A program made the position numbers and the translations under genes. The notes beneath the pieces were generated by a model that was not told where the DNA came from, searched no databases, and saw only the letters and a program-made list of their open reading frames with translations. From positions 5,704,001 through 5,768,000 of the forward strand of contig NZ_JADWYI010000001.1 in the NCBI RefSeq assembly GCF_016904885.1: a DNA stretch of 64,000 nt. Reading direction: 5' to 3'. Of the stretch, positions 25,833 through 43,059 are shown in pieces. Positions within the stretch are counted from its first letter, which is position 1. Every line of letters begins with the position of its first letter. The DNA comes from Archangium primigenium (GTDB lineage: Bacteria; Myxococcota; Myxococcia; Myxococcales; Myxococcaceae).

Positions 25833-25854
25833 CGCACTCCGGTTCCGGAAACGG

Positions 25855-26807: not shown

Positions 26808-26927
26808 GCCCCCGCGTGTGGGTGGGAGGGGAGCGGCGGGCCAGGCAACGCATCAGGGCGCCCTGGACGCCCCCCTCCTGTCGGGGAAGAACGCTAAGCT
26901 CGGCGCCCCCTGGAAAGGACGGCCCCC

Positions 26928-28613
26928 ATGCCTTGGCCCTGTGGCACTTGTGACTGGTCCAACCTGGACAACGCGACGGCGTGTCTGGTCTGCAAGGATC
27001 CCCGCATCAACGAGGTCCTCGACCGTCCGGCCCGTGCGCCCGCGCTCAAGACGCCGAGCCCACCTCCCGGCATGGGCGCGCCCCGCGAAGGCGTCGAGGA
27101 GCCCGGCAACCACCTGTATCCCAAGAAGGCCCACCAGCATCACGCGCAGACCTCGCGCTGCCTGACCCGGCGCCACCAGGACGCGGACATCCGCCAGAAC
27201 CAGATCGCCGAGGAGACGTTCGTCAAGCGGTTCCAGGCGGACCCCTTCTCCGTGTGGAAGGAGCTGCGCGAGCGCGCCCGGCGCGACCCGAACTTCTCCT
27301 TCCCCGAGCTGTCCGAGCTGTTCGACAACATGCGGCGGCAGTTGCTCACGATGGCGCAGCGGGCCTGCTGCGGCGAGCGGATGAAGGACATGCTCATCGA
27401 CAGCTGGGTGCCCGACGCGCTCCGCCTGGAGCTCCAGGGAGAGGCCCCCGCCCTGCTCCTGCGGGACATGGACGCGATCGCGCGCCAGGGCTACCGCTAC
27501 CAGGACGCGCTCCGCTTCTGTCTCAAGTTCGTCAAGGTGCTCGACTACATCACCTGGCGCGCGCGTACCGCGTGGGAGGTGCGTGGCTACAAGCTCGACG
27601 CGGCCCTGGACAAGGGCCTGGACACCACGGGCGCCGTCGCCCATTACAAGTACTCGGTGCGCGGGGACGTGGTCAGCGGCGTGCAGAAGGCGCGGGGCGA
27701 CTACGCCCGCAAGTGGGCCCTGGTGCCCCACGGCAAGCCCTCCGACACGAACACGCGCTTCGTGCACACGCGCTTCGAGCCGTACAAGCACTTCGCCGCG
27801 GGCTTCTCGTGCTTCCCCGAGTCCGTGACGATGATGGACGTCTACGACCTGGCGTCGACGAGCACCGCGTGGCCCTACGACACCGGCCATACCGATCGCG
27901 GCTCGACCCTGGAAACCCTGCTTGCGGATCCGGACATCGTGGCGGTGCCGACCTACAACTACCTGGGCTCGGGCTTCTTCACGCGCACGCGCGGCGTGCC
28001 CATGTGTGTCATCGGGATGATCGACACCGAGTTCATCGGCGCGGACGCCATCTGCATGAGCCCGCTCACGTTCTTCGATCACGACATGTTCCACATCGTC
28101 GGCTACCCCAAGAACTCCGACAGCACCCAGCTCGTGCACACGATGAAGTTCCGGCTCCAGGAGCTGCGCGCGAAGGTGGACGGCTCGCTGCGCGACGAGG
28201 ACGTCTACGCTCTGTGGGATCGCAACGCGAAGAAGGTGTTCGAGTGGATCGATCCGATGAAGGACAGGAAGCTGCGCTGGGCGCTGAACATCCTGGCGTT
28301 CTTCGTGCTGCACGAGCCGGCCAACCTGGGGGATGACACCCAGAACCCGCCGGCGCTCGCCGAGCCCCACGCGATGCGCGAGCGGCTGGAGAACCCGAAG
28401 CTGGGCGAGCGCATGCTCCTGCGCGCGCGCAACGGGGACTTCGGCGCGCCCTCCCAGGAGGTGCTCGCACACCTGTCGCCCGGGGGCGAGGCCTTCACGC
28501 GGCTGCTCGCGAAGCTCGACGAGCTCGAGGTGGACCCCGGACAAGGCCTGCATGGGTACGCGACCCGGAAGAACGGCAAGTTGCTGTCGCTGCCCTCCCG
28601 ACGGACGACCTGA
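26928..28613 (+). CDS. Protein with N-terminal RanBP2-type zinc finger, function unknown
   Basis: The first 22 residues match the RanBP2 zinc-finger consensus exactly: Trp3, Cys5, Cys8, Asn12, Cys19, Cys22 (W-x-C-x2-C-x3-N-x6-C-x2-C). In eukaryotes this finger binds RNA or ubiquitin. A Pro-rich linker (about 32-60) leads to a 500-aa region with no family I recognise. Visible stretches are KKAHQHHAQTSRCL, HTRFEPYKHFAAGFSCFP and MSPLTFFDHDMFHIVGYPKN, the last rich in His/Asp and possibly metal-binding. The protein is 561 aa. The ATG at 26928 is followed directly by the finger, which supports this start. It lies 120 bases after the Ser-rich protein gene. Confidence 0.72.
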   Translation: MPWPCGTCDWSNLDNATACLVCKDPRINEVLDRPARAPALKTPSPPPGMGAPREGVEEPGNHLYPKKAHQHHAQTSRCLTRRHQDADIRQNQIAEETFVKRFQADPFSVWKELRERARRDPNFSFPELSELFDNMRRQLLTMAQRACCGERMKDMLIDSWVPDALRLELQGEAPALLLRDMDAIARQGYRYQDALRFCLKFVKVLDYITWRARTAWEVRGYKLDAALDKGLDTTGAVAHYKYSVRGDVVSGVQKARGDYARKWALVPHGKPSDTNTRFVHTRFEPYKHFAAGFSCFPESVTMMDVYDLASTSTAWPYDTGHTDRGSTLETLLADPDIVAVPTYNYLGSGFFTRTRGVPMCVIGMIDTEFIGADAICMSPLTFFDHDMFHIVGYPKNSDSTQLVHTMKFRLQELRAKVDGSLRDEDVYALWDRNAKKVFEWIDPMKDRKLRWALNILAFFVLHEPANLGDDTQNPPALAEPHAMRERLENPKLGERMLLRARNGDFGAPSQEVLAHLSPGGEAFTRLLAKLDELEVDPGQGLHGYATRKNGKLLSLPSRRTT

Positions 28614-28661
28614 CCCAGGACTCGCGTTGCCGCCGGGGCTCCAGGACAATGCGGCCCCTGC

Positions 28662-30329
28662 ATGTCTCCTTCCTTCGACACCACGGGTGGCCCGGCCCCG
28701 CTCGGCACCCAGCTGCTCTCCGCGCACTTCCGCGCGGACGCCGCCGCCCGCGAGGCCATCGTGGCCCGGTTCATCAGCCGGATGGCCGCCCTCTGCATCC
28801 TCTCCACGCTCGGGCTCGTCTCGGTCATCGGCGGGCCGCGCGCCATGGCCGTGGCGGGCCTGTGCGCCGTCATCGCCGTCTACTACGGGGTGCTGTCCCG
28901 GGTGCTGCGGCGCGGCTGGTTCCACCCCGGCATCTACTGGGTCAACATCGCGCTGGAGACGTCCACCGGCGGGCTGCTCTTCGTCTGTGACACGCTCTTC
29001 GGCACGCCCGAGCAGGCGCTGGGCAACCCCATGGCCGTGCTCTGGACGGCGGCCATCGTGTTCGCGGCGCTGCGGGGCAAGCGCCGCCTGGCCCTGTTCG
29101 CCGGGGGACTCGTGGCGGCCCAGACGGTGCTGCTCTACTTCCTGCTGGCCTGGCCCCGGCTGGCCGAGCCCGTACCCATGTACTTCTCGCCGCCCCTGGT
29201 GCTGCTGCGGGCCGCCTACTACGTCGGCATCGGCTGGCTGGCGGCGCTCGTGGCCGGCTACCTCACGCAGCGCGCCGAGGAGGCGCTGCACGCCGTGCGG
29301 GCCAAGGATCTGGTGGGCAAGTACTTCCTGCACGAGCGGCTGGGCGTGGGCGGCATGGCCGAGGTGTTCCGCGCCACGTACAGCCCGGAGGGCGGCTTCG
29401 AGAAGGTGGTGGCCATCAAGCGCATCCTCCCGGCCTATGCCGAGGACGAGGACTTCGTGACGCTGTTCCGCCGGGAGGCGGAGCTGGGCTCGCTGCTCAA
29501 CCACCCCAACATCGTCCAGGTGCTCGACGTGGGCCGCTTCGGGGACACGTACTTCATGGCCATGGAGCACATCGAGGGCGTGTCCCTGCGCGAGCTCATC
29601 AAGAGCCACGGGCCGCTGCCGCCCGCGGTGGTGGCCTACCTGGGGGCGGAGCTGGGCGAGGCGCTCGACTACGTGCACCGGCGCACCGCGAGCGACGGCA
29701 CCCCGCTCAACCTCGTGCACCGCGACGTCAATCCCCCCAACATCCTGCTGTCGCGCATCGGCGAGGTGAAGCTCGGGGACTTTGGCGTGGCCCGGGCGGC
29801 CATCCACGTCCGGCTCACCCAGGCGGACCGGGTGCGCGGCAAGCTGGGCTACCTGGCGCCGGAGCAGGCCCGGGGCCACGCCTTCGACGGGCGCGCGGAT
29901 CTCTTCGCGCTCGGCCTCACGCTGCACGAGGCGCTCACCGGCCGGCGCGTCTTCCAGGACGAGGACATCTCCAACACCGTGCGCGCGACGCCGCCGCCCT
30001 TCCTCGTGTCGCCCTCGGTGCACCGCCCGGACGTGCCCCCCGCGCTGGACGCCGCCCTCATGGGCCTGGTGCGCTGGAACGTGCAGGAGCGCACGGAGCG
30101 GGGCCAGCGGCTGCGCGAGCAGTTGTGCGCCCTGACGGGCGTGGCCGCGCCCTTCCCCCGGGGACAGCGCGAGCTGGGCCGCCTGGTGCAGGAAGCCCTC
30201 GCGCACAAGGCGGGCCACGTCCCCGCGCGGAGCGCGGAGCGGGAGACCCGGGTGGAGCACCTCCCCTCCCCGCCGGGCAGCGAGGAGCCCACGGGCGTGG
30301 TGACGCGAAGGAGCTTGGATGAGCCGTGA
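28662..30329 (+). CDS. Membrane-anchored Ser/Thr protein kinase (Pkn type), N-terminal TM sensor
   Basis: The N-terminal 210 residues hold about six hydrophobic helices (for example FISRMAALCILSTLGLVSVIGG, MAVAGLCAVIAVYYGVLSRVL, FAGGLVAAQTVLLYFLLAW), then a full kinase domain: glycine loop LGVGGMAEVF, VAIKRI with the ATP Lys, catalytic loop HRDVNPPNILL, metal loop GDFGVA and GYLAPEQ. The catalytic loop has Asn where the usual Lys sits (HRDLKPEN); many myxobacterial Pkn proteins vary here. The C-tail is proline/charged. TM segments before the kinase are the reverse of the usual order (kinase then TM). It overlaps the next gene by 11 bases. Confidence 0.9.
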   Translation: MSPSFDTTGGPAPLGTQLLSAHFRADAAAREAIVARFISRMAALCILSTLGLVSVIGGPRAMAVAGLCAVIAVYYGVLSRVLRRGWFHPGIYWVNIALETSTGGLLFVCDTLFGTPEQALGNPMAVLWTAAIVFAALRGKRRLALFAGGLVAAQTVLLYFLLAWPRLAEPVPMYFSPPLVLLRAAYYVGIGWLAALVAGYLTQRAEEALHAVRAKDLVGKYFLHERLGVGGMAEVFRATYSPEGGFEKVVAIKRILPAYAEDEDFVTLFRREAELGSLLNHPNIVQVLDVGRFGDTYFMAMEHIEGVSLRELIKSHGPLPPAVVAYLGAELGEALDYVHRRTASDGTPLNLVHRDVNPPNILLSRIGEVKLGDFGVARAAIHVRLTQADRVRGKLGYLAPEQARGHAFDGRADLFALGLTLHEALTGRRVFQDEDISNTVRATPPPFLVSPSVHRPDVPPALDAALMGLVRWNVQERTERGQRLREQLCALTGVAAPFPRGQRELGRLVQEALAHKAGHVPARSAERETRVEHLPSPPGSEEPTGVVTRRSLDEP

Positions 30330-30780
30330 GGGAGACCCCCGGATGGATTGGCGTCAACGCCTGCGCGCGGTTTCGCGCCTCACGCTCGTGGGCTGGGCGG
30401 TCGCGTTCGTCATCCAGTACGTGTTGGGACAATGGCTCCTCACTGAAAGCTCCGTGTGCGCCCCGTGGGGGACCCGCCTCTCGCTGTTCGACCGCGCGGT
30501 GGCGCCGCCGTTCGTGTGGGGCCTGGGGACGGTGATGGTGGCGATCGCGTACCTGCTCGCGGTGGTGGTGACGATGGTGGGCAAGACGCCCCTCGCCGAG
30601 GCCCTGGGGCTCCTGCCGCTGATGCTGCTGCCCGTGCTCCTGCTCGGGCTGGGCGCGTGGTCCTTCCACCGGGAGCGGACCGGGGGCCCCCGCCCCTGGC
30701 GCTGGCTGAATGGGGCTCGCTGTTCGTGCTGGCCCTCGGGCTCAACGTCAGCGCCACCCTGCTGTTCTGCGTGGGCATGA
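30319..30780 (+). CDS. Multi-spanning membrane protein, probably frameshifted at its 3' end
   Basis: The 153-aa frame has three hydrophobic segments (VGWAVAFVIQYVLGQWLL, VWGLGTVMVAIAYLLAVVVTMV, LLPLMLLPVLLLGLGAWSF), then turns into a Cys/Pro-rich tail without membrane character. In the -1 relative frame the same DNA reads ALAEWGSLFVLALGLN and ends hydrophobic at 30788. One added base in the GGGGGCCCCC run at 30682-30691 joins the two into a four-helix protein. It may be a sequencing artefact or a real frameshift. Starts are ATG 30319 (after AAGGAG) or ATG 30343. It partly overlaps the kinase and may be its membrane partner (inference). Confidence 0.5.
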   Translation: MSREGDPRMDWRQRLRAVSRLTLVGWAVAFVIQYVLGQWLLTESSVCAPWGTRLSLFDRAVAPPFVWGLGTVMVAIAYLLAVVVTMVGKTPLAEALGLLPLMLLPVLLLGLGAWSFHRERTGGPRPWRWLNGARCSCWPSGSTSAPPCCSAWA

Positions 30781-30798
30781 GCGCGTGAACGGCGGGGC

Positions 30799-31365
30799 TC
30801 AGCGCGAGGGGTCCACCGAGGTCGGCGGCCGGGGCGTCTCGCGCACGGGGACGTAGCACTTGCCGGCATGCTCGTAGAACTGACCGCACGGCGGCGTGGC
30901 CACTACCAGCCAGCACCCCCCGTTGAGTTCCACCTGACCGCCGGGAGGCGGAAGACAGGGCGGGGCCTGCTGGCGCTCCAGCCGCTTGGGCGGCAGGGGC
31001 ACGGCGATCGTGCCGCCGTCCCGCGTCAGCCAGTCGGTGGTGGCCACCTCGGAGAGCGGCCCCTCCGACGCGGGCGCCCTGTACACGGCGGAGCGCGACG
31101 GCGAGAACAGGACCCCGAGCGCGACGCCGACCGCGAGGATCGCCCCGACGCGCGGGAGCCACTCGGGCGGCGAGCGCCACGCCGGACGCGGCACCCGGGC
31201 GAGACCGGCCCGCGCCACGACCCGCCCGGCCAGGAGCACGGGCACCGGGGAGCCCACCTGCCGCGCGCAGGCGACCGCGAAGCCCAGGAGTTCCGGTGTC
31301 CCCAAACCTCGCCGCCGGGCGCCGATGAAGACGCGTGCCCACTGCCGCCTTTTGCGTGGAGTCAT
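30799..31365 (-). CDS. Single-pass membrane protein with Cys-rich C-terminal domain
   Basis: ATG 31365 gives 188 aa. A basic N-terminus (MTPRKRRQW) is followed by a short region and one membrane helix (VGAILAVGVALGVLF, about 83-100). The outer part ends in a small domain with Cys residues in PPCLPPPGGQVELNGGCW and PPCGQF, GKCYVPV. A similar 'GGCW...GKCY' module is often attached to myxobacterial Ser/Thr kinases (recollection, not checked), and this gene converges on the kinase/membrane-protein pair. It may be a detached extracellular sensor. Confidence 0.6.
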   Translation of the reverse strand: MTPRKRRQWARVFIGARRRGLGTPELLGFAVACARQVGSPVPVLLAGRVVARAGLARVPRPAWRSPPEWLPRVGAILAVGVALGVLFSPSRSAVYRAPASEGPLSEVATTDWLTRDGGTIAVPLPPKRLERQQAPPCLPPPGGQVELNGGCWLVVATPPCGQFYEHAGKCYVPVRETPRPPTSVDPSR

Positions 31366-31445
31366 GTTGGGGACGTGACTTATCGCGTCGGGTGCGCGGG
31401 CGTCTAGAATCCAGGGTCCTGGACGCCCGCGTCCCCTCCCGGGTG

Positions 31446-32561
31446 CTACGGGCTCGCGGGCGTGTAGCGCGTGGCGTTGGAGCCCGACGCGGTGAACACC
31501 TGGCCGGTGTGCAGCAGCACGGCCGTCTCGTCCCTGACGGGCGCTCCCGCGGGCTGGGAGGTCCAGGTGCGGGTGGCCGGATCGAAGAGATCGGAGGCGC
31601 CGGAGCCCGCGACCACCAGCACCTTGCCCGAGTAGAGCAGGGTCGCGCTCTGGCTGCCGTACACGTGGTTCATGTTGGACGCGCGCGTCCAACTGTCGCT
31701 GTAGGGGTTGTACAGCCAGGACGCGAGGCTGGGGTCGCTGCCCTCGCTGCCGCCCATGAGCAGCACCTCGCCCGAGTACAGCCGGATGAGCTTGTGGGCG
31801 GTGTGGGCGCCCGGCTTGCTCGCCACGAGGCGCCAGGTGTTGGTGGCGGGGTTGTACACCTCGGCGTTGGCGCGCTCCGAGGGGTCCGGGTTTCCGGTCA
31901 CCAGCACCTCGCCCGAGTACAGCCGCGCCGCCGCCTGGAAGAAGCCGTAGGTCTTCTTGGGGCCCGTGCGGGTCCAGGTGCCGGTGTCCGGGTCGTACAC
32001 CTCGGCGGTGTAGGAGAAGCCGGCCATGGTGGTCATGCCGCCCGAGACGAGCACCTTGCCGGAGTCCAGCAGCGTGGTGGTGAACCAGGAGCGGCCCTCG
32101 TTGAGCGAGCCCGTGTAGCTCCAGGTGCCGGTGGCGGGGTCATACAGCTCCACGGCGCGCACGTTGGGCGTGACGCTGTTCTGTCCGCCGATGACGAGCA
32201 CCTTGCCCGAGGCGAGCCGCACCGCGCCGCCATTGGAGTGCGGCTCGTGGAGCGAGCCGGTGAAGGCCCACGTGTTGGAGTACGGGTTGTAGAGCTCCGC
32301 GGACGTGAGGTAGGTGTTCCAGTCCGAGCCCCCCGCGGCCAGCACCAGGCCCGAGTCGAGCAAGGTGAGCGAGTGCTTCTCGCGCCGCTGGAGCATGGGC
32401 GCCTGGGACGCCCAGGAGGCCGCGGCCTGCTTCTCCATCGCGTCGACGCGGGACGTCATCGGCGCGGTGTCCGGGGCCTCGGACTCCAGGGGCGCGCCAC
32501 AGCCGGTGGACAGGGACAGCAGGCCCGCGAACAGCAGGGAGCCGCGCAGCGTCGTGTGCAT
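31446..32561 (-). CDS. Kelch-repeat lipoprotein
   Basis: ATG 32561 is preceded by GAGGAAA and starts a lipoprotein signal (LLFAGLLSLSTGC, Cys about 21). The 371-aa product contains at least six kelch-type repeats of the form (S/G)GKVLVxGG...YDPATGTW, read as ASGKVLVIGGQN, DSGKVLVSGG, YSGEVLVTGN, YSGEVLLMGGSE, YSGKVLVVAG and HTGQVFTASG, so a beta-propeller is expected. These proteins are thought to mediate binding at the cell surface in myxobacteria; no partner can be named. Confidence 0.88.
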   Translation of the reverse strand: MHTTLRGSLLFAGLLSLSTGCGAPLESEAPDTAPMTSRVDAMEKQAAASWASQAPMLQRREKHSLTLLDSGLVLAAGGSDWNTYLTSAELYNPYSNTWAFTGSLHEPHSNGGAVRLASGKVLVIGGQNSVTPNVRAVELYDPATGTWSYTGSLNEGRSWFTTTLLDSGKVLVSGGMTTMAGFSYTAEVYDPDTGTWTRTGPKKTYGFFQAAARLYSGEVLVTGNPDPSERANAEVYNPATNTWRLVASKPGAHTAHKLIRLYSGEVLLMGGSEGSDPSLASWLYNPYSDSWTRASNMNHVYGSQSATLLYSGKVLVVAGSGASDLFDPATRTWTSQPAGAPVRDETAVLLHTGQVFTASGSNATRYTPASP

Positions 32562-32663
32562 GGGATTTCCTCGTGGGGGGAGCGGAACCGAGGGTCTCGG
32601 CTCCGCAGTTCTCCACGCTGACACGATTTGTTTATTCTCGCTGTTCGAACGAGTCCGCCGTGC

Positions 32664-32882
32664 TCATGGGGGACTCAGGGCCCCTTGTAGCGCCAGAAGC
32701 AACCGGCGCACGGCGTAGCCCTCGAAGTCGTCCACGGGATCGATGCTCGCGGGGAACACCTCCAGCGCGCTCTGGATCATCGTGAGCGTGGACTGGAGCC
32801 CCTCCGGCCCCGCCTGCCGTGGCGTTTGATCCAGCAGGAAGGCCGTGTTCACCAGGTTGGCCCACCGGTTGTCGTGCGTCAT
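32664..32882 (-). CDS. Small conserved-looking hypothetical protein
   Basis: A 72-aa frame starting at ATG 32882 (MTHDNRWANLVNTAFLLDQTP). It is amphipathic and acidic, and ends in an apparently folded helix (DDFEGYAVRRLLLALQ). Codon third positions are GC-rich as in its neighbours, which supports coding. It is short and lacks family motifs, so the call is tentative. Confidence 0.5.
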   Translation of the reverse strand: MTHDNRWANLVNTAFLLDQTPRQAGPEGLQSTLTMIQSALEVFPASIDPVDDFEGYAVRRLLLALQGALSPP

Positions 32883-33025
32883 GTGTCGCGCCCTCCCCGC
32901 GCAGGGGTGGAAGTCACCTGCCCTCTCGGCCTTATTCAACCCAGACGCGTCGCGCAATCGCTGGGCGCGACACGGCTCCGTGTATGGTCCGCTCAACCCC
33001 GACTTACCAGGAAAGCGGAAATACC

Positions 33026-34888
33026 ATGCACAAGGCAGGGAGCAGGTGGTTTGTGTCCGTCGTGCTCGGCGGACTGATGCTCGCGAGCACGGGCTGTGAC
33101 GAGGAGGCCGTGGGTCCTCGCCCTCCCCTCGCCCCGGACTGCGGGACGCCGCCCGACGTCGCCTCGCCGGACTGGGTGCCCTGTCAGTTGAAGGCCATGA
33201 CGCTCGAGGAGAAGGTGGGCCAGCTCTTCATGACGCACGCCTATGGCGAGAGCGCCACGGACACGGATCCCAAGATGCGGGAGGGCAACCGCAAGGATCA
33301 CGGGCTGGACACGGCGGCGCAGCTCGTGGAGCGCTACCACCTGGGCGGCGTCATCTACTTCACCTGGGCCAACAACCTGAAGACGCCGGAGCAGATCGCC
33401 CGGCTGTCCAACGGGCTGCAGGAGGTGGCGCTCGGCCAGGAGCGGCCCGTGCCCCTGCTCATCGCCACGGATCAGGAGCACGGGGTGGTGGTGCGGGTGA
33501 CCGAGCCGGCCACCCAGTTCCCCGGCAACATGGCCCTGGGCGCCACCCATGACGTGGAGACCGCGCGCCAGGCGGCGGTCATCACCGGGCGCGAGCTGCG
33601 CGCCCTGGGCATCAACCAGAACCTCGGCACGGTGGCGGACGTGAACAGCAACCCGCTCAACCCCGTCATCGGCGTGCGCTCCTTTGGCCTGGATCCCGCG
33701 CGGGTGGCGGCCTTCACCCAGGTGCAGGTGGGCGCCACGCAGGCCGAGGGCCTCGCGGCCACGGTGAAGCACTTCCCCGGCCATGGGGACACGGACGTGG
33801 ACAGCCACTACGGCCTGCCCATCATCCGCCGCACCCGGGCCCAGTTCGACGCGGCCGACCTGCCGCCGTTCGTGGCCGCCATCGACGCGGGCGTGGACGC
33901 CATCATGTCCGCGCACATCGTGGTGCCCGAGCTGGAGCCCTCGGGCCTGCCCGCCACGCTCAGCCCCGCGCTCATGACGGACCTGCTGCGCGGCCAGCTC
34001 GGCTTCACGGGCGTGGTGATCAGCGACTCGCTGTCCATGCAGGGCGCCCGGCCCTACGGCGACGCGAGCGACGCGCGCGTCCCCGTGGAGGCGCTCAAGG
34101 CGGGCGTGGATCTGCTGCTCATGCCCCCGCGCATCGACGTGGCCTACAACGCCGTGCGCGACGCGGTGAACAGCGGCGAGGTCAGCCAGGCGCGGCTCGA
34201 CGAGGCCGTGGGGCGCATCCTCACGCTCAAGCAGAAGCGCGGGGTGCTCGCCCAGCCCCGGGTGGACCTGGCCGGGCTCACGCGCGTGGGCGCCCCCGAG
34301 CACCTGGCCGTGGCCGATGCCCTCACCGAGCGCGGCATCACCCTGGTGAAGAACGAGGCGGGCGTCCTGCCGGTGAAGCCCGAGGTGCGCGAGGTGCTGG
34401 TGACGGGCTGGGGCGTCCCGGCGACGGACGCGCTGGCGGCGGCGCTGACCCAGCGCGGGCTGTCCGTGCGGACCCTGGAGACGGGCGCGAGCCCCACCCC
34501 GGAGAAGATCGAGCAGGCCCGGGCCGCGGCCGGACACGCGGACCTCACCGTGGTGCTGGTCCACCGGGCGTGGACGTCCGAGGCGCAGCCCGCGCTGGTC
34601 CGGGCGCTCCAGGGCACGGAGCGGCCGGTGGTGGTGGTCTCGGTGCGCGAGCCGTACGACCTGGCCTGGTTCCCCGAGGTGCCCACCTACGTGGCCACCT
34701 ATGGCTTCCGCACGGTCTCCATGAAGGCCCTGGCGCGGGTGCTGATGGGCGAGGTGGACCCCTCGGGCCGCCTGCCCGTCACCCTGCCCCAGAAAGACCC
34801 GGCCGCGCCGGTGCTCTTCCCCGTGGGCCATGGCCACGCGTACGGCCCTTCACGCTTCTTCACGCCCGCGGCGAGCGCGCTCCGTTAG
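33026..34888 (+). CDS. GH3 glycosidase, NagZ-like beta-N-acetylhexosaminidase lipoprotein
   Basis: The product is a lipoprotein (LGGLMLASTGC, Cys about 24) with a GH3 (beta/alpha)8 barrel and the NagZ-type signature KHFPGHGDTDVDSHYG (about 252-267). The nucleophile Asp is in GVVISDSLSMQG. NagZ releases N-acetylglucosamine from muropeptides or glycans; here the enzyme is exported, unlike cytoplasmic E. coli NagZ. At 620 aa it has the extra C-terminal alpha/beta domain (VLVTGWGVPATDALAAALTQ) of larger GH3 enzymes. A role in degrading prey cell wall is likely (inference). ATG 33026 follows AGGAAA. Confidence 0.88.
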   Translation: MHKAGSRWFVSVVLGGLMLASTGCDEEAVGPRPPLAPDCGTPPDVASPDWVPCQLKAMTLEEKVGQLFMTHAYGESATDTDPKMREGNRKDHGLDTAAQLVERYHLGGVIYFTWANNLKTPEQIARLSNGLQEVALGQERPVPLLIATDQEHGVVVRVTEPATQFPGNMALGATHDVETARQAAVITGRELRALGINQNLGTVADVNSNPLNPVIGVRSFGLDPARVAAFTQVQVGATQAEGLAATVKHFPGHGDTDVDSHYGLPIIRRTRAQFDAADLPPFVAAIDAGVDAIMSAHIVVPELEPSGLPATLSPALMTDLLRGQLGFTGVVISDSLSMQGARPYGDASDARVPVEALKAGVDLLLMPPRIDVAYNAVRDAVNSGEVSQARLDEAVGRILTLKQKRGVLAQPRVDLAGLTRVGAPEHLAVADALTERGITLVKNEAGVLPVKPEVREVLVTGWGVPATDALAAALTQRGLSVRTLETGASPTPEKIEQARAAAGHADLTVVLVHRAWTSEAQPALVRALQGTERPVVVVSVREPYDLAWFPEVPTYVATYGFRTVSMKALARVLMGEVDPSGRLPVTLPQKDPAAPVLFPVGHGHAYGPSRFFTPAASALR

Positions 34889-34901
34889 CGTTCGGCTCGC
34901 C

Positions 34902-35603
34902 ATGACCACCGCCAAAGCCGCCGTCCAAGGCCTCCTCGGCCGTCTGTTCTTCCGCGACACCACGGTGACCCACGCCGAGGACGTGGGCCGCCGCTTCCGC
35001 AGGCTGGTGCTCTCGGGCCCGGCCCTGCGGGGCGTGGAGTGGACCCCGGGCGACAAGCTGCAGATCTTCCTGCCGGACGCGGGGACGCGGACCTATACGC
35101 CGCTGCGCTGGGACGCGAGCACGGGCGAGACCGAGCTGCTCGCGTACCTGCACGGCGACACCCCGGGCGCGCGATGGGCCCGGACGGTGCGCGCCGGGGC
35201 CGCGCTCCAGATCTTTGGACCTCGAAGCTCCCTGGTCGTCGGCGGTCCGTCCCCGGCGGTGATGTTCGGCGACGAGACGAGCCTGGCGCTGGCCCGGGCC
35301 AATGGCGAGCCCGGACGGACGGTGCTCGAGGTCTCCGAGCCCGAGGAGACCCAGGGGGCCCTCGACGCCCTGGGCCTGCGGGGCGTGCGGCTCGTCACCC
35401 GCCGGGCCGACGACGCCCACCGCGAGGAGCTGGTCGACGCGGTCGCCCAGGCCCTCCAGGCGCATCCCGGGGCGCCCCTCGTGCTCTCGGGCCGCGCGGC
35501 CGCCATCCAGGGCGTGCGCCAGGGACTCAAGGCCCGGGGCACGGCCGCCCCGGCGCTCAAGACCCGGGCCTACTGGGCGCCGGGCAAGGTGGGAATGGAT
35601 TGA
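34902..35603 (+). CDS. Siderophore-interacting protein (FAD-binding ferric reductase-like)
   Basis: The 233-aa product has the SIP/flavodoxin-reductase fold: the FAD motif RTYTPLRW (RxYT), a linker, the NAD-binding end domain (SPAVMFGDETSLALA) and a C-terminal YWAPGK tail typical of the family. These proteins reduce ferric siderophores in the cytoplasm. No iron-uptake genes are adjacent. ATG 34902 lies 13 bases after the GH3 stop. Confidence 0.82.
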   Translation: MTTAKAAVQGLLGRLFFRDTTVTHAEDVGRRFRRLVLSGPALRGVEWTPGDKLQIFLPDAGTRTYTPLRWDASTGETELLAYLHGDTPGARWARTVRAGAALQIFGPRSSLVVGGPSPAVMFGDETSLALARANGEPGRTVLEVSEPEETQGALDALGLRGVRLVTRRADDAHREELVDAVAQALQAHPGAPLVLSGRAAAIQGVRQGLKARGTAAPALKTRAYWAPGKVGMD

Positions 35604-35676
35604 CACGGGGCGCGCGGAACGCCAGGAGGGGGCGCGCATCGAAGGCGGTCGACAGCACCGCCTCCTGGAGACACCC

Positions 35677-36075
35677 ATGGGATTCCTGACCCCGCACACC
35701 GCTCGCATCTACGCCCTGCTTCGCATCGTGACGGGCTTCATGTTCATGTTTCACGGCCTGCAGAAGGTCTTCGGCATGTTCGGCGGCACGCCTCCCGGGG
35801 CGCCGCCGTTCATCATCTACGGCGCGGGACTCATCGAGCTCGTGGGCGGCATCCTCGTGATGATCGGGCTGTTCGCCGGCCCGGCGGCCTTCATCTCGAG
35901 CGGCACCATGGCGTTCGCCTTCTTCATGGGACACGCCGTCCCCGGCGGCCACATCCTGCCCATCGTGAACAAGGGCGAGCTCGCCGCGCTCTACTGCTTC
36001 GTGTTCCTCTACATCGCCGCGCACGGCTCGGGCATCTGGAGCGTGGACGCCGCGCGCCGCGGCGCCAGGCCCTAG
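35677..36075 (+). CDS. DoxX-family membrane protein
   Basis: A 132-aa protein with four hydrophobic helices and DoxX hallmarks (ARIYALLRIVTGFMFMFHGLQKVFG, LIELVGGILVMIGLF, MGHAVPGGHILPIVNKGE). DoxX-like proteins are membrane components whose roles include quinone-linked redox and stress processes; the function is not fixed here. ATG 35677 follows CTGGAG. Confidence 0.85.
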   Translation: MGFLTPHTARIYALLRIVTGFMFMFHGLQKVFGMFGGTPPGAPPFIIYGAGLIELVGGILVMIGLFAGPAAFISSGTMAFAFFMGHAVPGGHILPIVNKGELAALYCFVFLYIAAHGSGIWSVDAARRGARP

Positions 36076-36088
36076 GCGCCCCCCGTGC

Positions 36089-36541
36089 TTACAGGTGGAA
36101 GTCCCCGGCCGCCTCGGGCTGGTAGAGGACTTCCATGATGCGCAGGTGGGCCTGGCGCTCGTGGGGCAGAGGCCAGTGGATGGCATCCCCGACCTTGAGG
36201 CCCAGCACCGCGAGCCCGACCGGCGCCAGGATGGAGATGCGCGACTGCTCCATGTCCGCCTCCTCCGGATAGACGAGCGTCGCCTCGCGGCGGCGGCCCG
36301 TCTCCATGTCCTCGAAGAGGATGCGCGAGCGCATGGTGACGACATCGGACGGCATCTGGTCCTGGGGCACCACCCGGGCGCGGTCCAGCTCCAGCTCCAA
36401 CTGCTCGGCCGCCGCGGCCCGGGAGCCCTCGAGGTAGCGCTCCACGACCGTGCGCAGACGCGTCATGTCCTCGGCGGTGATGCGCAAGGCCGGAGCGGGG
36501 GTGGGGGTGGAGCGGGAATCCGTCACGGGGAGAGACGTCAT
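36089..36541 (-). CDS. rnk: Rnk-like nucleoside diphosphate kinase regulator (GreA/GreB C-terminal fold)
   Basis: A 150-aa protein with the GreA/B C-terminal FKBP-like domain but a short N-terminus rather than the GreA coiled coil: VTMRSRILFEDMETGRRREATLVYPEEAD and ILAPVGLAVLGLKVGDAIHWPLP. This is the Rnk/GreA-like class. Rnk modulates NDP-kinase; related proteins act on RNA polymerase. The start could be the first Met or a few codons later. It converges on doxX. Confidence 0.78.
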   Translation of the reverse strand: MTSLPVTDSRSTPTPAPALRITAEDMTRLRTVVERYLEGSRAAAAEQLELELDRARVVPQDQMPSDVVTMRSRILFEDMETGRRREATLVYPEEADMEQSRISILAPVGLAVLGLKVGDAIHWPLPHERQAHLRIMEVLYQPEAAGDFHL

Positions 36542-36860
36542 GGCGAGCCTCGGAGCCCCTGGCGCCGCACGGCGGCCGGGAGCCCGTCAGGGGGTGGAAA
36601 GGTGAAGCGAGGGGGGAACCGCGGAAATGCGGTGCGCCGTCGACGGTGGGGGTCAGCCCAGGACCGTCGAGGCGCGGCTCCCAGGGCAAGCCGTCTTCCG
36701 GACACACCTTCCCTGAGCACCACGCCGGGGCGTTGAAGCGCTGAGGGTGAAGGTGACTCGGGACACGCTGCCTCCAGGGACCGCTGCGATGAGGTTAACC
36801 AACCCCACCTCGCTCCGCAATCCATGTCACGCCCACGACCCGAAGCGGTATAGGGGCCCC
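36542..36860. other. 319-base intergenic region without a convincing gene
   Basis: It lies between the divergent rnk-like gene and the beta-helix gene and presumably holds both promoters. No RNA gene or repeat was found. A TATAG-like string lies close to the downstream ATG (36849-36853), but its spacing is too short for a normal -10 element. Antisense-frame open reading is explained by high GC. Confidence 0.5.
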
Positions 36861-38213
36861 ATGCTCGACTTCTCACGCGTCCGAAGCCCCCTGCTCTTCT
36901 TGCTGTTGATGCCCACCGCCGCGAGCGCCGCCACGCTCACGGTCGGCGCGGGAAAGACCTACGCCACCCCGAGCGCCGCCGCCGCCGCCGCGCGCGATGG
37001 GGACACCATCGAGATCTCCCCGGGCGTCTACCAGGACGAGGCCACCTGGAAGGCCCATGGCCTGACGATTCGCGGCGTGGGCGGGACGCGGGCCCAGCTC
37101 GACGCGACGGGGCGCACCCTCTCCAACCGCAAGGCCATCTGGGTCATCCAGGGCACGGGCACGACGGTGGAGAACATCGAGTTTTTCGGCGCCAAGGTCC
37201 CCGACCGCAACGGCGCGGGCATCCGGCAGGAGGGCGCGGGCCTCACGGTGCGCGGCTGCTATTTCCACGACAACCAGAACGGACTGCTCGCGGGCGACAA
37301 GGCCGACAGCGACATCCTCATCGAGTCCTCGTGGTTCGCGCGCAACGGCGACGGCGATGGCCAGTCGCACAACATGTACATCAACCGGGTGCGCAGCTTC
37401 ACGCTGCGCTTCAGCTACTCGCACGGCGCGAAGGTCGGCCACCTGGTGAAGAGCCGCGCGTACAGCACGTCCATCCTCTACAACCGGCTCACGGGCGAGG
37501 AGGGCAATCCCAGCTACGAGATCGACGTGCCCAACGGCGGCCGGGTGGAGATCGTGGGCAACCAGATCCACCAGGGCACGGCGGCGGAGAACTCGACCCT
37601 GGTGTCGTTCGGCGCCGAGGGCACGAGCAACCCGGAGCAGTCACTGCTCGTGAGCCACAACACCTTCGTGAACGAGCGCTCGGCGGGAGGCACCTTCGTG
37701 CGCGTCGCCGGCTCGCCGACGGCGCGGATCGTCAACAACCTGTTCATCGGCCCGGGCACGGCCCTGAGCGGCACGGCGACGCAGCAGTCCAACCTCGTCA
37801 TGGACAAGGCGAGCCTCGTCAACGCGGCGGGCTTCGACTACCACCTGAAGGCGGGCGCCCCCGCCATCAACGCGGGCACGGATCCGGGCACGGACGCCAC
37901 GCCGCGCTTCCACTACGTGCACCCCCTGGGCAGTGAGCCGCGTCAGCGCGTGGACAGCGCGTGGGACGTGGGCGCGTTCGAGTTCGGCACGCCGCCCGCC
38001 CCGCCCACGTCTCCGGACGACGGGGGGACGCCTCCGGACGCCGGGACGCCTCCGGACGCGGGGACGCCCGGCACGCCCGAGACGCCCGCGACGCCCGGTG
38101 GAGAAGAAGGGACCCCCGAGGAGTCGCGCCGCGGCTGCACGACGTCGGGCGCCGCCACCTCGGCCCTGGCGCTCCTGGCGCTGCTCGCGCTGGCACGGCG
38201 CCGCGCCCGCTGA
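36861..38213 (+). CDS. Right-handed beta-helix protein with MYXO-CTERM sorting tail
   Basis: Sec signal peptide (LLFLLLMPTAASAATL) at 1-24, then a 340-residue region of parallel beta-helix repeats (GDTIEISPGVYQDEATW, IRGVGGTRAQLDATG, NGAGIRQEGAGLTVRGCYFHDNQNG). A Pro/Asp/Gly/Thr spacer (PPDAGTPPDAGTPGTP) precedes a C-terminal signal RRGCTT...ALLALLALARRRAR: a Cys, hydrophobic helix and Arg cluster, as in MYXO-CTERM (TIGR03901). The protein is 450 aa. Pectate-lyase-like folds are used by polysaccharide-binding or -cleaving proteins; the substrate is unknown. The tail suggests sorting to the cell surface. Confidence 0.88.
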   Translation: MLDFSRVRSPLLFLLLMPTAASAATLTVGAGKTYATPSAAAAAARDGDTIEISPGVYQDEATWKAHGLTIRGVGGTRAQLDATGRTLSNRKAIWVIQGTGTTVENIEFFGAKVPDRNGAGIRQEGAGLTVRGCYFHDNQNGLLAGDKADSDILIESSWFARNGDGDGQSHNMYINRVRSFTLRFSYSHGAKVGHLVKSRAYSTSILYNRLTGEEGNPSYEIDVPNGGRVEIVGNQIHQGTAAENSTLVSFGAEGTSNPEQSLLVSHNTFVNERSAGGTFVRVAGSPTARIVNNLFIGPGTALSGTATQQSNLVMDKASLVNAAGFDYHLKAGAPAINAGTDPGTDATPRFHYVHPLGSEPRQRVDSAWDVGAFEFGTPPAPPTSPDDGGTPPDAGTPPDAGTPGTPETPATPGGEEGTPEESRRGCTTSGAATSALALLALLALARRRAR

Positions 38214-38323
38214 CGTCGTCCGGTGACGAATGGCGCCGGGAGCGTTCACCGGCGAGCACTGAGGGCGGTCGGAAAAATGGACAGTCCGGGTCCGACCCCT
38301 TTGGGCACTAGGATCGCGGCGGA

Positions 38324-38761
38324 ATGGACGGCCCTGGCGCCTGGACGATCGGACGACACACCTTCCGCTGGGAGGATCCCCACATCCTGTGGGTGACGCT
38401 CGTGGGAGACAACGACCTGGAGGAGGCGCGTCAGATGGCGAGCCTCTACCGGGCCCTGGGCGAGCGCGCGCCGTTCTACATCCTGGCGGACTCGAGCGCC
38501 GCGGGAGGGATGCAACAGGAGGCGCGACGCCACCTCAGCGAGCACCTGCGGTCCCAGTGGTTCCAGGGGGTCATCTTCTACAACACGCGGCTGTTGCACC
38601 GGGCCATGGCGCGGGGGTTGATCCTCGCGGGAGAGCTCTTCCATGCCTACCCCGGCGGCGTGAGCGTCATGCGCGGACGGCTGCACTTCGTCGACACCCA
38701 GGACGAGGCCCAGGCGCTGGTCGCGCGCTTGGGCACCCAGGAAGTGGACTCGCGTCCGTGA
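38324..38761 (+). CDS. STAS-like hypothetical protein
   Basis: The 145-aa protein has alternating strands and helices (ILWVTLVGDNDLEEARQMA, PFYILADSSAAGG, VIFYNTRLLHRAMARGLILA, RLHFVDTQDEAQALVARLG) that fit a SpoIIAA/STAS-type fold (inference). No catalytic residues are seen. It lies 54 bases upstream of the orphan sheath gene on the same strand. Confidence 0.6.
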   Translation: MDGPGAWTIGRHTFRWEDPHILWVTLVGDNDLEEARQMASLYRALGERAPFYILADSSAAGGMQQEARRHLSEHLRSQWFQGVIFYNTRLLHRAMARGLILAGELFHAYPGGVSVMRGRLHFVDTQDEAQALVARLGTQEVDSRP

Positions 38762-38815
38762 GACGACGGGCGCAAGATTCGACGTCGCCCCCCCTCAAAG
38801 GAGCATCTCGCGCGT

Positions 38816-39865
38816 ATGACGATCCGCTTCCCAGTCTCGCCAGGAGTCCACATTGAAGAGAGTGATTCGCTCGCCTTGAGCACGGGTCGGCAACCCACGG
38901 CGGTTCCCGTCTTCGCGGTGGGCGCCCACGGTGGCATCACCGAGACCACGCGCCTCAATACCTTCTCGGAGTTCACCCGCGCCGTGGGGGACTTCGACCC
39001 CAAGCAGACGTTGCATGTCGCCCTCCGGAGCTACTTCGACAATGGGGGCGGGTATTGCTACCTCGTTCCCACCGCGCGCTGGACGACGGAGCTCCCCAAA
39101 CTGGACGACGTCACCCTGCTGGTCGCCGCGGGCCAGGACGTCCGCGCCCAGGTCCTGGAACTCTGTGTGCCCGGCGCTCACCGGTTCGCCCTGCTGGATG
39201 GCCCCGAGGCGGAGCTCACGAAGGACAGCGCCGAGTCCCTTCCCTCGACGTCTCACGCCGCGGCCTACTTCCCCTGGCTGACCGCGGACTGGGCCGAGAC
39301 CCCCATTCCGCCCAGCGCCACGGTGGCGGGGGTGTTCTGCCGGGTGGATCGCGAACGGGGCGTCTGGAAGGCCCCCGCCAACGTCGCATTGAACGGAGGC
39401 GTGCGGCCTGTTCACCGGATCTCGGATGAGCAGCAAGCCCAGTACACGGACGGCAAGGCCCTCAACATGATCCGGGAGTTCCCGGGCCAAGGCACTGTCG
39501 TCTGGGGCGCGAGAACCTTGGAGGCGGAGTCCACGGCGTGGCGCTACGTCCCCGTCCGCCGTCTGTTCGACTCCGTCGAGCGACATATCCAGGCGACCCT
39601 GAGCCCCGTGATCTTCGAGCCCAATTCGAGCGCGACCTGGGAGCGGGTTCGCGCGGCGATCGAGAACTACCTCTACACCCTCTGGAAGCAGGGCGCTCTG
39701 GTGGGCACTTCTCCCCAGGAGAGCTACTCCGTGCAGGTCGGTGAGGGCGTTACCATGACCCCGGACGACGTCTCGAAGGGCGTGTTGAGGGTCCGCGTCG
39801 CACTCGCGGCCGTCCGTCCCGCCGAATTCATCGTCCTGGAATTCACCCAGCAACTGGGAGGCTGA
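38816..39865 (+). CDS. Contractile tail-sheath family protein (orphan)
   Basis: The 349-aa protein shows the sheath family stretches from end to end: SPGVHIEE at the N-terminus, ALRSYFDNGGGYCYLV near 65-80, AAYFPWL, the central ATVAGVFCRVDRERGVWKAP, and the C-terminal LRVRVALAAVRPAEFIVLEFTQQ that closes the fold. Phage sheaths are larger, but eCIS sheaths such as Afp2/Pvc2 are of about this size (from memory). ATG 38816 has AGGAG 11 bases upstream. No tube, baseplate, spike or ATPase gene is in the window, so it is an orphan here. Confidence 0.85.
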   Translation: MTIRFPVSPGVHIEESDSLALSTGRQPTAVPVFAVGAHGGITETTRLNTFSEFTRAVGDFDPKQTLHVALRSYFDNGGGYCYLVPTARWTTELPKLDDVTLLVAAGQDVRAQVLELCVPGAHRFALLDGPEAELTKDSAESLPSTSHAAAYFPWLTADWAETPIPPSATVAGVFCRVDRERGVWKAPANVALNGGVRPVHRISDEQQAQYTDGKALNMIREFPGQGTVVWGARTLEAESTAWRYVPVRRLFDSVERHIQATLSPVIFEPNSSATWERVRAAIENYLYTLWKQGALVGTSPQESYSVQVGEGVTMTPDDVSKGVLRVRVALAAVRPAEFIVLEFTQQLGG

Positions 39866-39921
39866 CGCCCCCGGGGGAGAAGCGCCTCCGGACGCGGGAG
39901 CCGGTGTGTCATCGTCCGGGG

Positions 39922-42114
39922 ATGCGATGCGTCTTCGTCTCCCTCGGCCTGCTGGTGATGAGCCTGTCCAGCCCGCCCGTCCTGGCCCTCCCGGAGGCGC
40001 GACGCGAGCTCGCCGAGCGCTACGTCCATCTGCCGGAGCTCATCCGCGACAGCCTGGTGCCTCCGCGATGGCTCCGTCAGGGGGACCGGCTGATCTTCTG
40101 GTCGGCGGTGGGAAAGGACAGCGGCACCTGGGTGCTGGTGCATGCCCGCACCGGCGCGATGAAACCCCTGCTGGCCAGCGCCGCGCTGCGCACCCAGCTC
40201 TCGCGCCTGATGGGCAAGCCGGTGCGCCTGCCCGCCCAGATGGGCTTCGCGCTCGCGCCGGATGAGCGGGGCATTGTCTTCGCCTTCGAGGGACGGACCT
40301 TCGCGCTGGGACTGTCCGACGGCCGGGTCACGGCCCTGGCGCCCACCGACCCGGCCACCTGGGCGCTGTCCCGCGAGCACCAGCGCGCCCCGATCGGAGG
40401 CGCCGTCGCGGTGCAACGGGAGGACGGCTTCGCGGTGCTGGGAAGTGACGGACGCCCGCGGGTCGAGCGCTCCGGAGAGGAGAATCACGGCTGGCGGCTC
40501 CCCGAGAAGGCCTGGTCTCCCGACGGGCGCTTCCTGGTGGTCACCCGGGACGATCTGCGCGGCGTCCACACGATTCCCCTCGTGGACTATTCGAGCGCGC
40601 TCGAGCGCGTGATTCCGGTGCCCTACGTCAAGGTCGGCACGCCCCTGGCGCGCACGGAGTTCCACGTGGTCGAGCCGTCGACGGGCCGGGTGACCCAGGT
40701 CCCCCCGGTCGAGGGCGAGACCCATGCCTGGTTCGCGGGGTGGCGCCCTCGGGGCGGCGAGGCGCTGTTCCTCCACCTGACCCGGGACGGCAAGCGCCTG
40801 GACCTGGTGGCGGTGGATCCCGTGTCCGGCGAAAGCCGACGGGTGCTGCGCGAGGAGCGGCCCGAGAGCTTCGTGGGGGGATTGGACTTCGCCCTGGAGG
40901 GCTGGTCCTGGCAGGTCACCCCACTGCCGGATGACTCGGGCTTCCTGTGGATGTCCGAGCGCGATGGATGGCGGCACGTCTACCTGTATGACGCCGCGGG
41001 CACGCTCGTGCGACAGGTCACCCGGGGCGACTTCCCGGTGCATCGGGTGGTGGGGATCGCGCCCCAGGGGGACGCGGTCTTCGTGCTGGCCTCCGCCGAC
41101 AGCGGCGCGCCCTACGAGCACCTGCTCTACCGGGGCACGTTGAAGGGCGGTGCGTTGACGCGCATGTCCTCGGGCTCGGGCATGCACACCGTCACCTTCT
41201 CGCCCTCGGGCGCGTACTACGTCGACGCCTGGTCCTCGCGGACGCAGCCCCGGCTGCGGGAGGTGGTGGCCACGGAAGGTGGCGGCCGCGTGCGCCTCAC
41301 CACGGCCGACGCGAGTGCCCTCCAGGCGCTGGGCTACACGCCGCCCGAGGCCCTCACCGTCCAGGCCGCCGATGGCGTCACCCCGCTGCACGGCGTGCTC
41401 TACACGCCGCGCGATTTCGACGCCGCCCGGCGCCACCCGGTCATCGTGTACGTCTACTCCGGACCGTTCACCACGATCGTGCCCTGGAGCTTCGTGGGCT
41501 CCTCCATGTCCCTGGAGGCGAACGCCCTGGCGCAGCGGGGCTTCATCGTCGTGATGATCGATCCCCGGGGGACTCCGGGCCGGAGCAAGGCGTTCCAGGA
41601 CACGAACCATGGGCGGATTGGCCAGACCGAGATCCCCGATCAGGTCGCCGGGCTGAAACAGGCCGCCGCCACGCGCCCGTGGATGGACCTGGAGCGGGTC
41701 GGGATCCACGGCCACTCGTGGGGGGGCTACTTCGCTCTGCGCGGCATGCTGACGGCGCCAGAGGTCTTCAAGGCGGGCTACGCGGGAGCCCCCGGCGCCC
41801 TGGAAGAGGAGGCGATCATCAACGAGCCCTACCTCGGCCTGCCCCAGGACAATCCCGAGGGCTACCGGGCGGGGTCCAACCTCGCGCTGGCCGGCAACCT
41901 CCAGGGGACGCTCAAGCTGATGCACGGCACCCACGACGTGAATGCCTCCCTGTCCACGACCCTGCGCATGGCCGATGCGCTCATCCGCGCGGACAAGCAC
42001 TTCGAGCTGCTCCTCATGCCCGGACAGCCGCACACCCCCGAGCCGCCCGCGGATCGCTACTACCGCGAGGACGTCCAGGGCTTCTTCCTGCGCACCCTGG
42101 GCGAGCCCCGGTAG
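39922..42114 (+). CDS. S9-family prolyl oligopeptidase/DPP IV-like peptidase
   Basis: Secreted serine peptidase: a signal peptide (FVSLGLLVMSLSSPPVLA) is present. The 730-aa product has an N-terminal beta-propeller (about 60-430) and a C-terminal alpha/beta hydrolase domain. The triad is seen as GHSWGGY (Ser about 599), HGTHDVNA (Asp about 672) and GQPHTPE (His about 704). These enzymes cleave after proline or alanine in peptides, consistent with predation on protein. I use ATG 39922 rather than GTG 39904 because it starts directly with the signal peptide. Confidence 0.9.
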   Translation: MRCVFVSLGLLVMSLSSPPVLALPEARRELAERYVHLPELIRDSLVPPRWLRQGDRLIFWSAVGKDSGTWVLVHARTGAMKPLLASAALRTQLSRLMGKPVRLPAQMGFALAPDERGIVFAFEGRTFALGLSDGRVTALAPTDPATWALSREHQRAPIGGAVAVQREDGFAVLGSDGRPRVERSGEENHGWRLPEKAWSPDGRFLVVTRDDLRGVHTIPLVDYSSALERVIPVPYVKVGTPLARTEFHVVEPSTGRVTQVPPVEGETHAWFAGWRPRGGEALFLHLTRDGKRLDLVAVDPVSGESRRVLREERPESFVGGLDFALEGWSWQVTPLPDDSGFLWMSERDGWRHVYLYDAAGTLVRQVTRGDFPVHRVVGIAPQGDAVFVLASADSGAPYEHLLYRGTLKGGALTRMSSGSGMHTVTFSPSGAYYVDAWSSRTQPRLREVVATEGGGRVRLTTADASALQALGYTPPEALTVQAADGVTPLHGVLYTPRDFDAARRHPVIVYVYSGPFTTIVPWSFVGSSMSLEANALAQRGFIVVMIDPRGTPGRSKAFQDTNHGRIGQTEIPDQVAGLKQAAATRPWMDLERVGIHGHSWGGYFALRGMLTAPEVFKAGYAGAPGALEEEAIINEPYLGLPQDNPEGYRAGSNLALAGNLQGTLKLMHGTHDVNASLSTTLRMADALIRADKHFELLLMPGQPHTPEPPADRYYREDVQGFFLRTLGEPR

Positions 42115-42303
42115 GCGCTCACCTGTCCCCCGCGCGCAGGAGTCCTTGACGCCGGAGCTCCGATGCCACGAGCCGTGCGGTGAGCTGTATCGGTCTTCAC
42201 AGGCGACGTGTGAAGCCGCGCACAGGCCGCGAACGGCCGGAATGACAGAACAGGGCTCACCGAACGCCACACGCCGTCGCGTTCGCACCCCAGGAGAGCC
42301 CTC

Positions 42304-43023
42304 ATGTCGATTCCCCGTTATGGATTGCTCGTCGCCCAGGCCGTCGAGGGCAAGCCCGCCACCAACGCCTTCGCCCACTACCAGGTCATCGCGCGGGACC
42401 CCACGAGCGGCGAGCCGTACCAGATCGACATCAACGTCCGCTCCCAGGACGGCTCCGAGGTGCTCTACTCCATCAACGAGTCGTTCCAGAACGCCCTCAC
42501 GGACGCGCTGAGCCGTGGGGCGCGGGATGGCATCAACGCGCTCGACAGCGTCCCCGGCTCGCTGTCCATCGACTACCTGCGCAGCGGGCTCTTCCCCGTT
42601 TCCGCCATGAAGCCCCTGGGCATGGAGACGCCCCCCAAGCAGGATCTGAATGATCTGATCGGCGGCTACATCCAGCGGGCCATCCAGACGCAAGGGGCGC
42701 GGCTGTACGCGTTCGGCCAGTACTTCGATGACGCCCAGCAGCCCGGACGCGCTCGCCGCTCGAGCAACGGGCCGTCCAAGGGCATCCACGACATCCACAT
42801 GAACCAGGGCAACGCGGGCCGGTGGGAGCGGGACAACGGGACGTACCAGGACGGTGGGTTGCTGATCAGCTACCCCGGCCAGGGATGGGTGGCCATCTTC
42901 CTCGCCTTCCAGGTGCAGTCCTTCCAGACGAACGATGCCAACGGAGACCCCACCGGCCCGTCCTGGGCGCAGCTCCACGGCGGCGAGGTGTACGAGGAGC
43001 CGGGCACCTCCGAGGCCGCCTGA
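42304..43023 (+). CDS. DUF2278 (YukJ-like) protein
   Basis: The 239-aa product matches the DUF2278 pattern: RYGLLVAQAVEG, YQIDINVRS, then SKGIHDIHMNQGN followed by W...NGTYQDGG and WVAIFLAFQVQSFQTND. The conserved GIHDIHMNQG and QDGG stretches are probably the functional surface. Function is unknown in the family. The gene has AGGAG before ATG 42304 and its own gap of 189 bases upstream. Confidence 0.8.
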   Translation: MSIPRYGLLVAQAVEGKPATNAFAHYQVIARDPTSGEPYQIDINVRSQDGSEVLYSINESFQNALTDALSRGARDGINALDSVPGSLSIDYLRSGLFPVSAMKPLGMETPPKQDLNDLIGGYIQRAIQTQGARLYAFGQYFDDAQQPGRARRSSNGPSKGIHDIHMNQGNAGRWERDNGTYQDGGLLISYPGQGWVAIFLAFQVQSFQTNDANGDPTGPSWAQLHGGEVYEEPGTSEAA

Positions 43024-43059
43024 GCCGGCGGTCCGAGAAAGCCCGTCCGCCCTGGCGCC

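What the first reader, a model, noticed from the sequence alone, without database searches (positions are those of the whole stretch)
38816..39865. Orphan contractile tail-sheath protein
The 349-aa sheath protein is complete and of eCIS size, but no tube, baseplate, spike, ATPase or cap gene is within the window. The neighbours are a STAS-like protein, a secreted peptidase and DUF2278. It may be a domesticated sheath with a new role, or may serve a contractile apparatus encoded elsewhere.
Basis: partly seen in the sequence, partly recalled or inferred. Interest (0 to 1): 0.6.

Follow-up and report, generated by a model that had tools for sequence, protein, structure and literature searches.

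The report
Lone injection-machine sheath gene
The gene encodes an intact main sheath subunit of an insect-toxin-type (Afp/PVC) contractile injection machine, but it sits alone in this bacterium, far from the genome's five complete contractile machines, and looks like a gene imported by itself whose use here, if any, is unknown.

Summary
In detail: 38816-39865 (+) encodes a complete 349-aa contractile sheath with a ribosome-binding site and no machine genes around it. It belongs to the Afp2/Pvc2 class (main sheath subunit of Afp/PVC particles; Pvc2 match 410 bits) and keeps 69 of 71 residues invariant in 13 cluster-borne members. The host, by inference a myxobacterium, has two eCIS clusters and three T6SS elsewhere, each with its own, different sheath, so no cluster lacks one. 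A second lone copy (316 aa, 54% identical in the aligned part) lies 741 kb away; it is truncated and degenerate but open, in an operon of 4-nt overlaps with two enzymes. Of 195 phylum genomes only one other has this class, again alone, as a sharp 1.25-kb low-GC block; a Streptomyces plasmid has one between IS elements. Elsewhere the class almost always sits in tube1-sheath1-sheath2-sheath3 clusters. The window copy is the most foreign gene of the window by codon usage and lies in a 19-kb interval absent from all three congeners. Best reading: a laterally acquired lone main-sheath gene, able by sequence to fold and polymerise, with no shown partner, probably a passenger. Domestication is possible but unproven. 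Interest is moderate.

The parts
38816..39865 (+). Lone Afp2/Pvc2-class contractile sheath protein, 349 aa, intact
38796..38803 (+). Shine-Dalgarno-like AAAGGAGC, about 12 nt before the ATG
   Evidence: Sequence printed
38324..38761 (+).
   Evidence: no domain over cut-off
39922..42114 (+). Downstream S9/DPPIV-type serine peptidase, 56-nt gap (38 nt if the GTG at 39904 is the start). In most relatives sampled it is divergently paired with a LysR gene, which is absent here
42304..43023 (+). DUF2278 protein, last gene of the lineage-specific interval
23849..43059 (.). About 19-kb lineage-specific interval between genes that abut in all three congeners; no tRNA, integrase or terminal repeats found

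Best explanation
SHOWN: the gene encodes a full-length Afp2/Pvc2-class sheath subunit, which in Afp/PVC particles makes up most of the sheath (established knowledge). It has no partner genes nearby, and every contractile machine in this genome has its own, different sheath. INFERRED: a single sheath-1 gene from an Afp/PVC-type cluster was brought in by lateral transfer as part of a variable 19-kb interval. It is translated from its own ribosome-binding site, possibly from a read-through transcript shared with its co-directional neighbours. If expressed it folds as a normal two-domain sheath protein and either stays monomeric or polymerises into tube-less, already contracted 'polysheath' tubes, as phage sheath proteins do when made alone. 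With no baseplate, tube or cap of its own class it cannot form a working injector. It is most likely a passenger gene that still looks functional because its independent life is short or because it did its diverging inside a working cluster.
For: Class: PDB match to Pvc2/Afp2 over the whole length; sheath-1 branch in trees. Integrity: 69/71 class-invariant residues including both terminal arms, and a short end branch of 0.34-0.39. Lone: no tube, gp25 or Pvc16 gene in the window; all five other contractile loci carry their own sheaths. Lateral origin: the class is in only 2 of 195 phylum genomes; it has the lowest GC3 (0.854 against 0.959 +/- 0.028 outside the interval) and lowest host codon fit (0.488) of 53 window genes; the interval is missing in 3/3 congeners. 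Lone transfer happens elsewhere: the G035 copy is a 1.25-kb block of 55% GC in 66-69% surroundings, and the Streptomyces copy lies between transposases. Polysheath precedent: PMC6357053, PMC6088184.
Against: GC3 of 0.85 means the gene is already largely adapted to a high-GC genome, so it may have been kept for long, and neutral drift would by then probably have introduced stop codons (P(no stop) 0.03-0.18 at 20% residue change, indels ignored). Repeated lone acquisition, and a second open copy in an enzyme operon, are more than one expects of pure passengers. Diffocin sheath, also small, does not self-assemble (PMC6088184), so polysheath formation is not assured. The donor is unknown, so its original GC is too.
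Confidence: 0.5

Rival explanations
1. Domesticated stand-alone sheath: the protein polymerises or acts alone in a new role, for example as a cytoplasmic tube or scaffold, and is kept by selection.
For: Near-complete conservation of class-invariant residues and both terminal arms; separate lone copies in G035, Streptomyces and elsewhere in this genome; one clade for window+G035 is rejected (p-AU 0.009), as it is for all four (0.015), so lone copies arose more than once; the second copy is open and overlaps its neighbours by 4 nt although its branch is 3-4 times longer.
Against: No shared neighbour among the four lone copies; absent from all three congeners; the second copy has lost the N-terminal arm and 25 of 71 invariant residues, as decay would give; no promoter-like site or partner found. 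The clade tests were run after seeing the tree.
Confidence: 0.22
2. Spare or alternative sheath subunit for the resident eCIS clusters at 5.95 or 6.06 Mb, acting in trans.
For: Both eCIS loci lie within about 320 kb on the same contig and encode tubes; Afp/PVC particles mix several sheath paralogues (PMC10598620).
Against: Both clusters have their own sheaths, only 30-36% identical to this one in blastp and in a separate, well-supported branch. The class is otherwise encoded with sheath 2 and 3 of its own type. Relatives with eCIS-type sheaths lack this gene.
Confidence: 0.13
3. In-place relic: the last surviving gene of an Afp/PVC cluster that once stood at this site or elsewhere in the genome.
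For: Two divergent copies in one genome, which can be sisters (p-AU 0.33); phage-tail loci often erode (general knowledge).
Against: No fragment of tube, sheath 2/3, spike or baseplate of that type near either copy; congeners and outgroups show no cluster at the site; in G035 the low-GC block is gene-sized.
Confidence: 0.12

Closest known systems
Pvc2 (Photorhabdus PVC) and Afp2 (Serratia antifeeding prophage), main sheath subunits
   Same: Same class by tree and by full-length match of 410/305 bits; 349 aa against 354-355; both terminal arms present
   Different: No adjacent tube (Afp1), sheath 2/3 (Afp3/4), tube initiator, spike, baseplate or ATPase; two class-invariant residues changed (Y12H, D257H)
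Resident eCIS clusters of the same genome (5.95 and 6.06 Mb)
   Same: Contractile sheath proteins; core eCIS domains present in these clusters
   Different: Their sheaths are 30-36% identical to this one (blastp) and form another branch; the clusters have sheaths without it
Phage tail sheaths (T4 gp18, FV3 gp053, pyocin sheath) and their polysheaths
   Same: Homologous C-terminal sheath domain; others of this fold polymerise without partners (PMC6357053)
   Different: At most about 31% identity over up to 75% of the protein in the phage records listed; no phage record matched 80% of the query

Membership tests
Afp2/Pvc2-class contractile sheath protein | Sheath C-terminal (PF17482) and subtilisin-like (PF04984) domains over cut-off | tested here: met
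   48 and 35.4 bits against cut-offs 26.9 and 31.4
Afp2/Pvc2-class contractile sheath protein | Groups with sheath 1 rather than sheath 2/3 of Afp/PVC clusters | tested here: met
   Falls among cluster-borne sheath-1 proteins, apart from the sheath-2 and sheath-3 branches; the fork holding the sheath-1 rows without the Streptomyces copy has support 94/94
Afp2/Pvc2-class contractile sheath protein | N- and C-terminal arms that link neighbouring subunits (handshake) | tested here: met
   PGVHIEE and RPAEFIVLEFTQQ arms present; only Y12H changed in the N arm. Actual assembly was not testable
Extracellular contractile injection system (eCIS) | Sheath co-encoded with tube, baseplate/gp25, spike, cap and AAA ATPase | tested here: not met
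   None of the marker families searched (tube, gp25, cap) lies in the window; tubes only at 5.95 and 6.06 Mb; no Afp/PVC-type gene within about 8-12 kb
Extracellular contractile injection system (eCIS) | Particle formation and contraction | not testable with these tools
   Needs expression and electron microscopy
Component of an otherwise sheath-less cluster elsewhere | A tail cluster in the genome that lacks a sheath | tested here: not met
   Two eCIS with PF17482 sheaths and three T6SS, each with proteins read from sequence as TssB/TssC

The most novel reading that the evidence does not exclude
Lone Afp2/Pvc2-type sheaths are a recurring domesticated class: bacteria repeatedly take up just the main sheath gene and use it, without tube or baseplate, as a self-assembling cytoplasmic tube or as a scaffold, and the second, truncated copy with two enzymes is a further step away from the machine.
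Probability: 0.18. Interest if true: 0.75.

Novelty: new member of a known kind. Interest (0 to 1): 0.38.

Why it matters
Sheath genes are treated as markers of contractile injection machines. This case shows that a sheath hit alone does not mean a machine, and that the main sheath gene can move by itself between distant bacteria. If a lone sheath turned out to have a job, it would be a new use of the contractile fold and a naturally tube-free system for studying sheath polymerisation.

Tried and rejected
(1) Chance ORF: rejected, full-length homology. (2) Phage or prophage sheath: rejected, phage matches are weak and partial. (3) Dispersed part of a sheath-less machine: rejected, all five machines carry sheaths. 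(4) Two IMG/VR loci that first looked like lone sheaths (L169, L177): rejected, they are the 3' halves of clusters whose 5' halves are L170 and L183 on the same contigs. (5) Pairwise dN/dS between copies: not used, synonymous sites are near saturation once codon bias is allowed for. (6) AlphaFold of the sheath from a 7-row alignment was poor (pLDDT 44) and is not used; fold rests on sequence. (7) AlphaFold and Foldseek of the upstream 145-aa protein were uninformative. (8) A lost charge in a tube-attachment helix (D257H): dropped, because I could not assign which helix faces the tube. (9) Papers on lone eCIS sheaths: none found in the open-access library searched, which is not proof that none exist. 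(10) Defence-gene library: no hit for the sheath.

Full report
1. The + strand ORF 38816-39865 gives 349 residues without interruption, with AAAGGAGC about 12 nt before its ATG. Both sheath domains pass Pfam's cut-offs, and the closest solved structures are a PVC-like sheath (9qgl), Pvc2 and Afp2, matched over residues 7-346. This is a main sheath subunit of the Afp/PVC type, not merely 'a sheath'. Phage sheaths are much further off.

2. The genome around it. The window is 5,704,001-5,768,000 of a 9.47-Mb contig. The genome has five sheath places: this one; a second lone copy at 5.00 Mb; two sheaths in an eCIS cluster at 5.95 Mb; and one in a second eCIS cluster at 6.06 Mb. The first cluster has a Pvc16 cap, tubes, a spike/hub, gp25, baseplate J and an AAA ATPase; the second has a tube, hub, gp25 and baseplate J, with a weak cap match. 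Tube proteins occur only in those two clusters and a clear Pvc16 cap only in the first. gp25 occurs there and in three T6SS-type loci whose neighbours read, by sequence, as TssB, TssC and Hcp (assignment by eye).

3. Rarity. Of 195 genomes of the phylum, only this one and G035 (same family, other genus) have a protein of this class at E <= 1e-60. G035's gene (56% identical) is also alone and stands out as about 1.25 kb of 55% GC between flanks of 66-69%, which reads as transfer of a single gene. On a Streptomyces microflavus plasmid (NZ_CP054927.1) a gene of this class lies between transposase genes with no tail genes. Elsewhere the class is clustered: all six genome contigs from the scan and 51 of 53 IMG/VR loci at 38% identity or more show tube or further sheath partners, as a rule in the order tube1-sheath1-sheath2-sheath3, and the other two are 3' halves of clusters. 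Plasmid clusters show the same order. IMG/VR is biased towards clusters, since tail genes help to flag a contig as viral.

4. Where it sits. In all three congeners the genes corresponding to 22475-23848 and 43060-43773 abut and are convergent; here they are 19 kb apart, with the sheath near the right end of the extra DNA. In other genera the same gap holds other, variable genes. The extra DNA holds no tRNA, no obvious integrase and no terminal repeats, so its mode of entry is unknown. The peptidase downstream is an old family gene; in nine of the ten relatives whose flanks I read it is paired with a divergent LysR gene, which is missing here, so the sheath lies at a rearrangement point. The sheath has the lowest GC3 and the lowest host codon fit of 53 genes in the window.

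5. Quality of the protein. Of 71 residues invariant in 13 cluster-borne sheath-1 proteins, this copy keeps 69, G035's 67, the Streptomyces copy 63 and the second copy in this genome 46. In trees the window copy has a short end branch (0.34-0.39) and the second copy a long one (1.26-1.78). The second copy lacks the N-terminal arm, has gaps in the C-terminal domain and falls below both Pfam cut-offs, yet is open for 316 codons and overlaps by 4 nt with a beta-lactamase-family gene upstream and an NAD-epimerase gene downstream. It still matches Pvc2 by sequence at 246 bits. Holding the window and G035 copies together as one clade is rejected (p-AU 0.009), and so is holding all four lone copies (0.015); window plus second copy is not (0.33). 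These tests were run after the tree was seen. They suggest that lone copies arose more than once.

6. How it most likely works. Shown: an intact sheath subunit with no machine of its own. Inferred: if made, it folds normally, and either stays monomeric or forms tube-less polysheaths. Precedents go both ways: FV3 gp053 polymerises alone, tolerating loss of up to 25 N-terminal and 100 C-terminal residues (PMC6357053), whereas diffocin sheath stays monomeric (PMC6088184). I think it most likely a laterally acquired passenger. Against that stand its good condition and the fact that lone copies recur. A neutral simulation shows that 20% residue change without selection would usually leave a stop (P(no stop) 0.03-0.18), so the gene has been protected for most of its history.

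7. Membership and novelty. It is a member of the Afp2/Pvc2 sheath class. It is not, by itself, an eCIS. I found no paper describing lone sheaths of this class in the library searched. The protein is a new member of a known kind in an unusual setting; a new function is possible but unproven.

Noticed in passing
Own genome C1:5001375-5002325 (-), loci L006/L007: Second lone sheath, 316 aa, without the N-terminal arm and with 25 of 71 class-invariant residues lost, in an apparent operon with 4-nt overlaps between a beta-lactamase-family gene and an NAD-epimerase gene.
   Followed up: partly
Own genome C1:5947686-5964594, loci L008/L009: eCIS cluster, less host-like in composition (sheath GC3 0.72-0.82), with an IS-type transposase-like gene just upstream and a long Ala-Pro repeat inside its first sheath protein.
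   Followed up: partly
Own genome C1:6058814-6069026, loci L010/L011: Second, host-like eCIS cluster with one sheath and one tube gene.
   Followed up: partly
Own genome C1 near 4.14, 5.27 and 8.48 Mb, loci L192-L195: Three T6SS-type loci (read by eye from sequence), each with TssB/TssC-like, Hcp-like and gp25 genes.
   Followed up: partly
window 23962-43023: 19-kb lineage-specific interval in a variable spot: GNAT acetyltransferase, Ser/Thr kinase (28662-30329), Kelch-repeat protein, GH3-like glycosidase, beta-helix protein with a myxosortase-type tail, and several proteins with no Pfam hit (23962-25317, 25908-26804, 27072-28610).
   Followed up: partly
L048/L049 (G035 C2:5979653-5980711): Lone sheath of the same class as a sharp gene-sized low-GC block, evidence that a sheath gene can be transferred alone.
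   Followed up: yes
L051:9980-11074 (NZ_CP054927.1): Lone Afp2/Pvc2-like sheath on a Streptomyces microflavus plasmid between transposase genes.
   Followed up: partly
L169 and L177: PVC-type clusters with extra, long sheath genes at their 3' ends beside what look like the cap and ATPase genes, so some clusters carry many sheath paralogues.
   Followed up: partly
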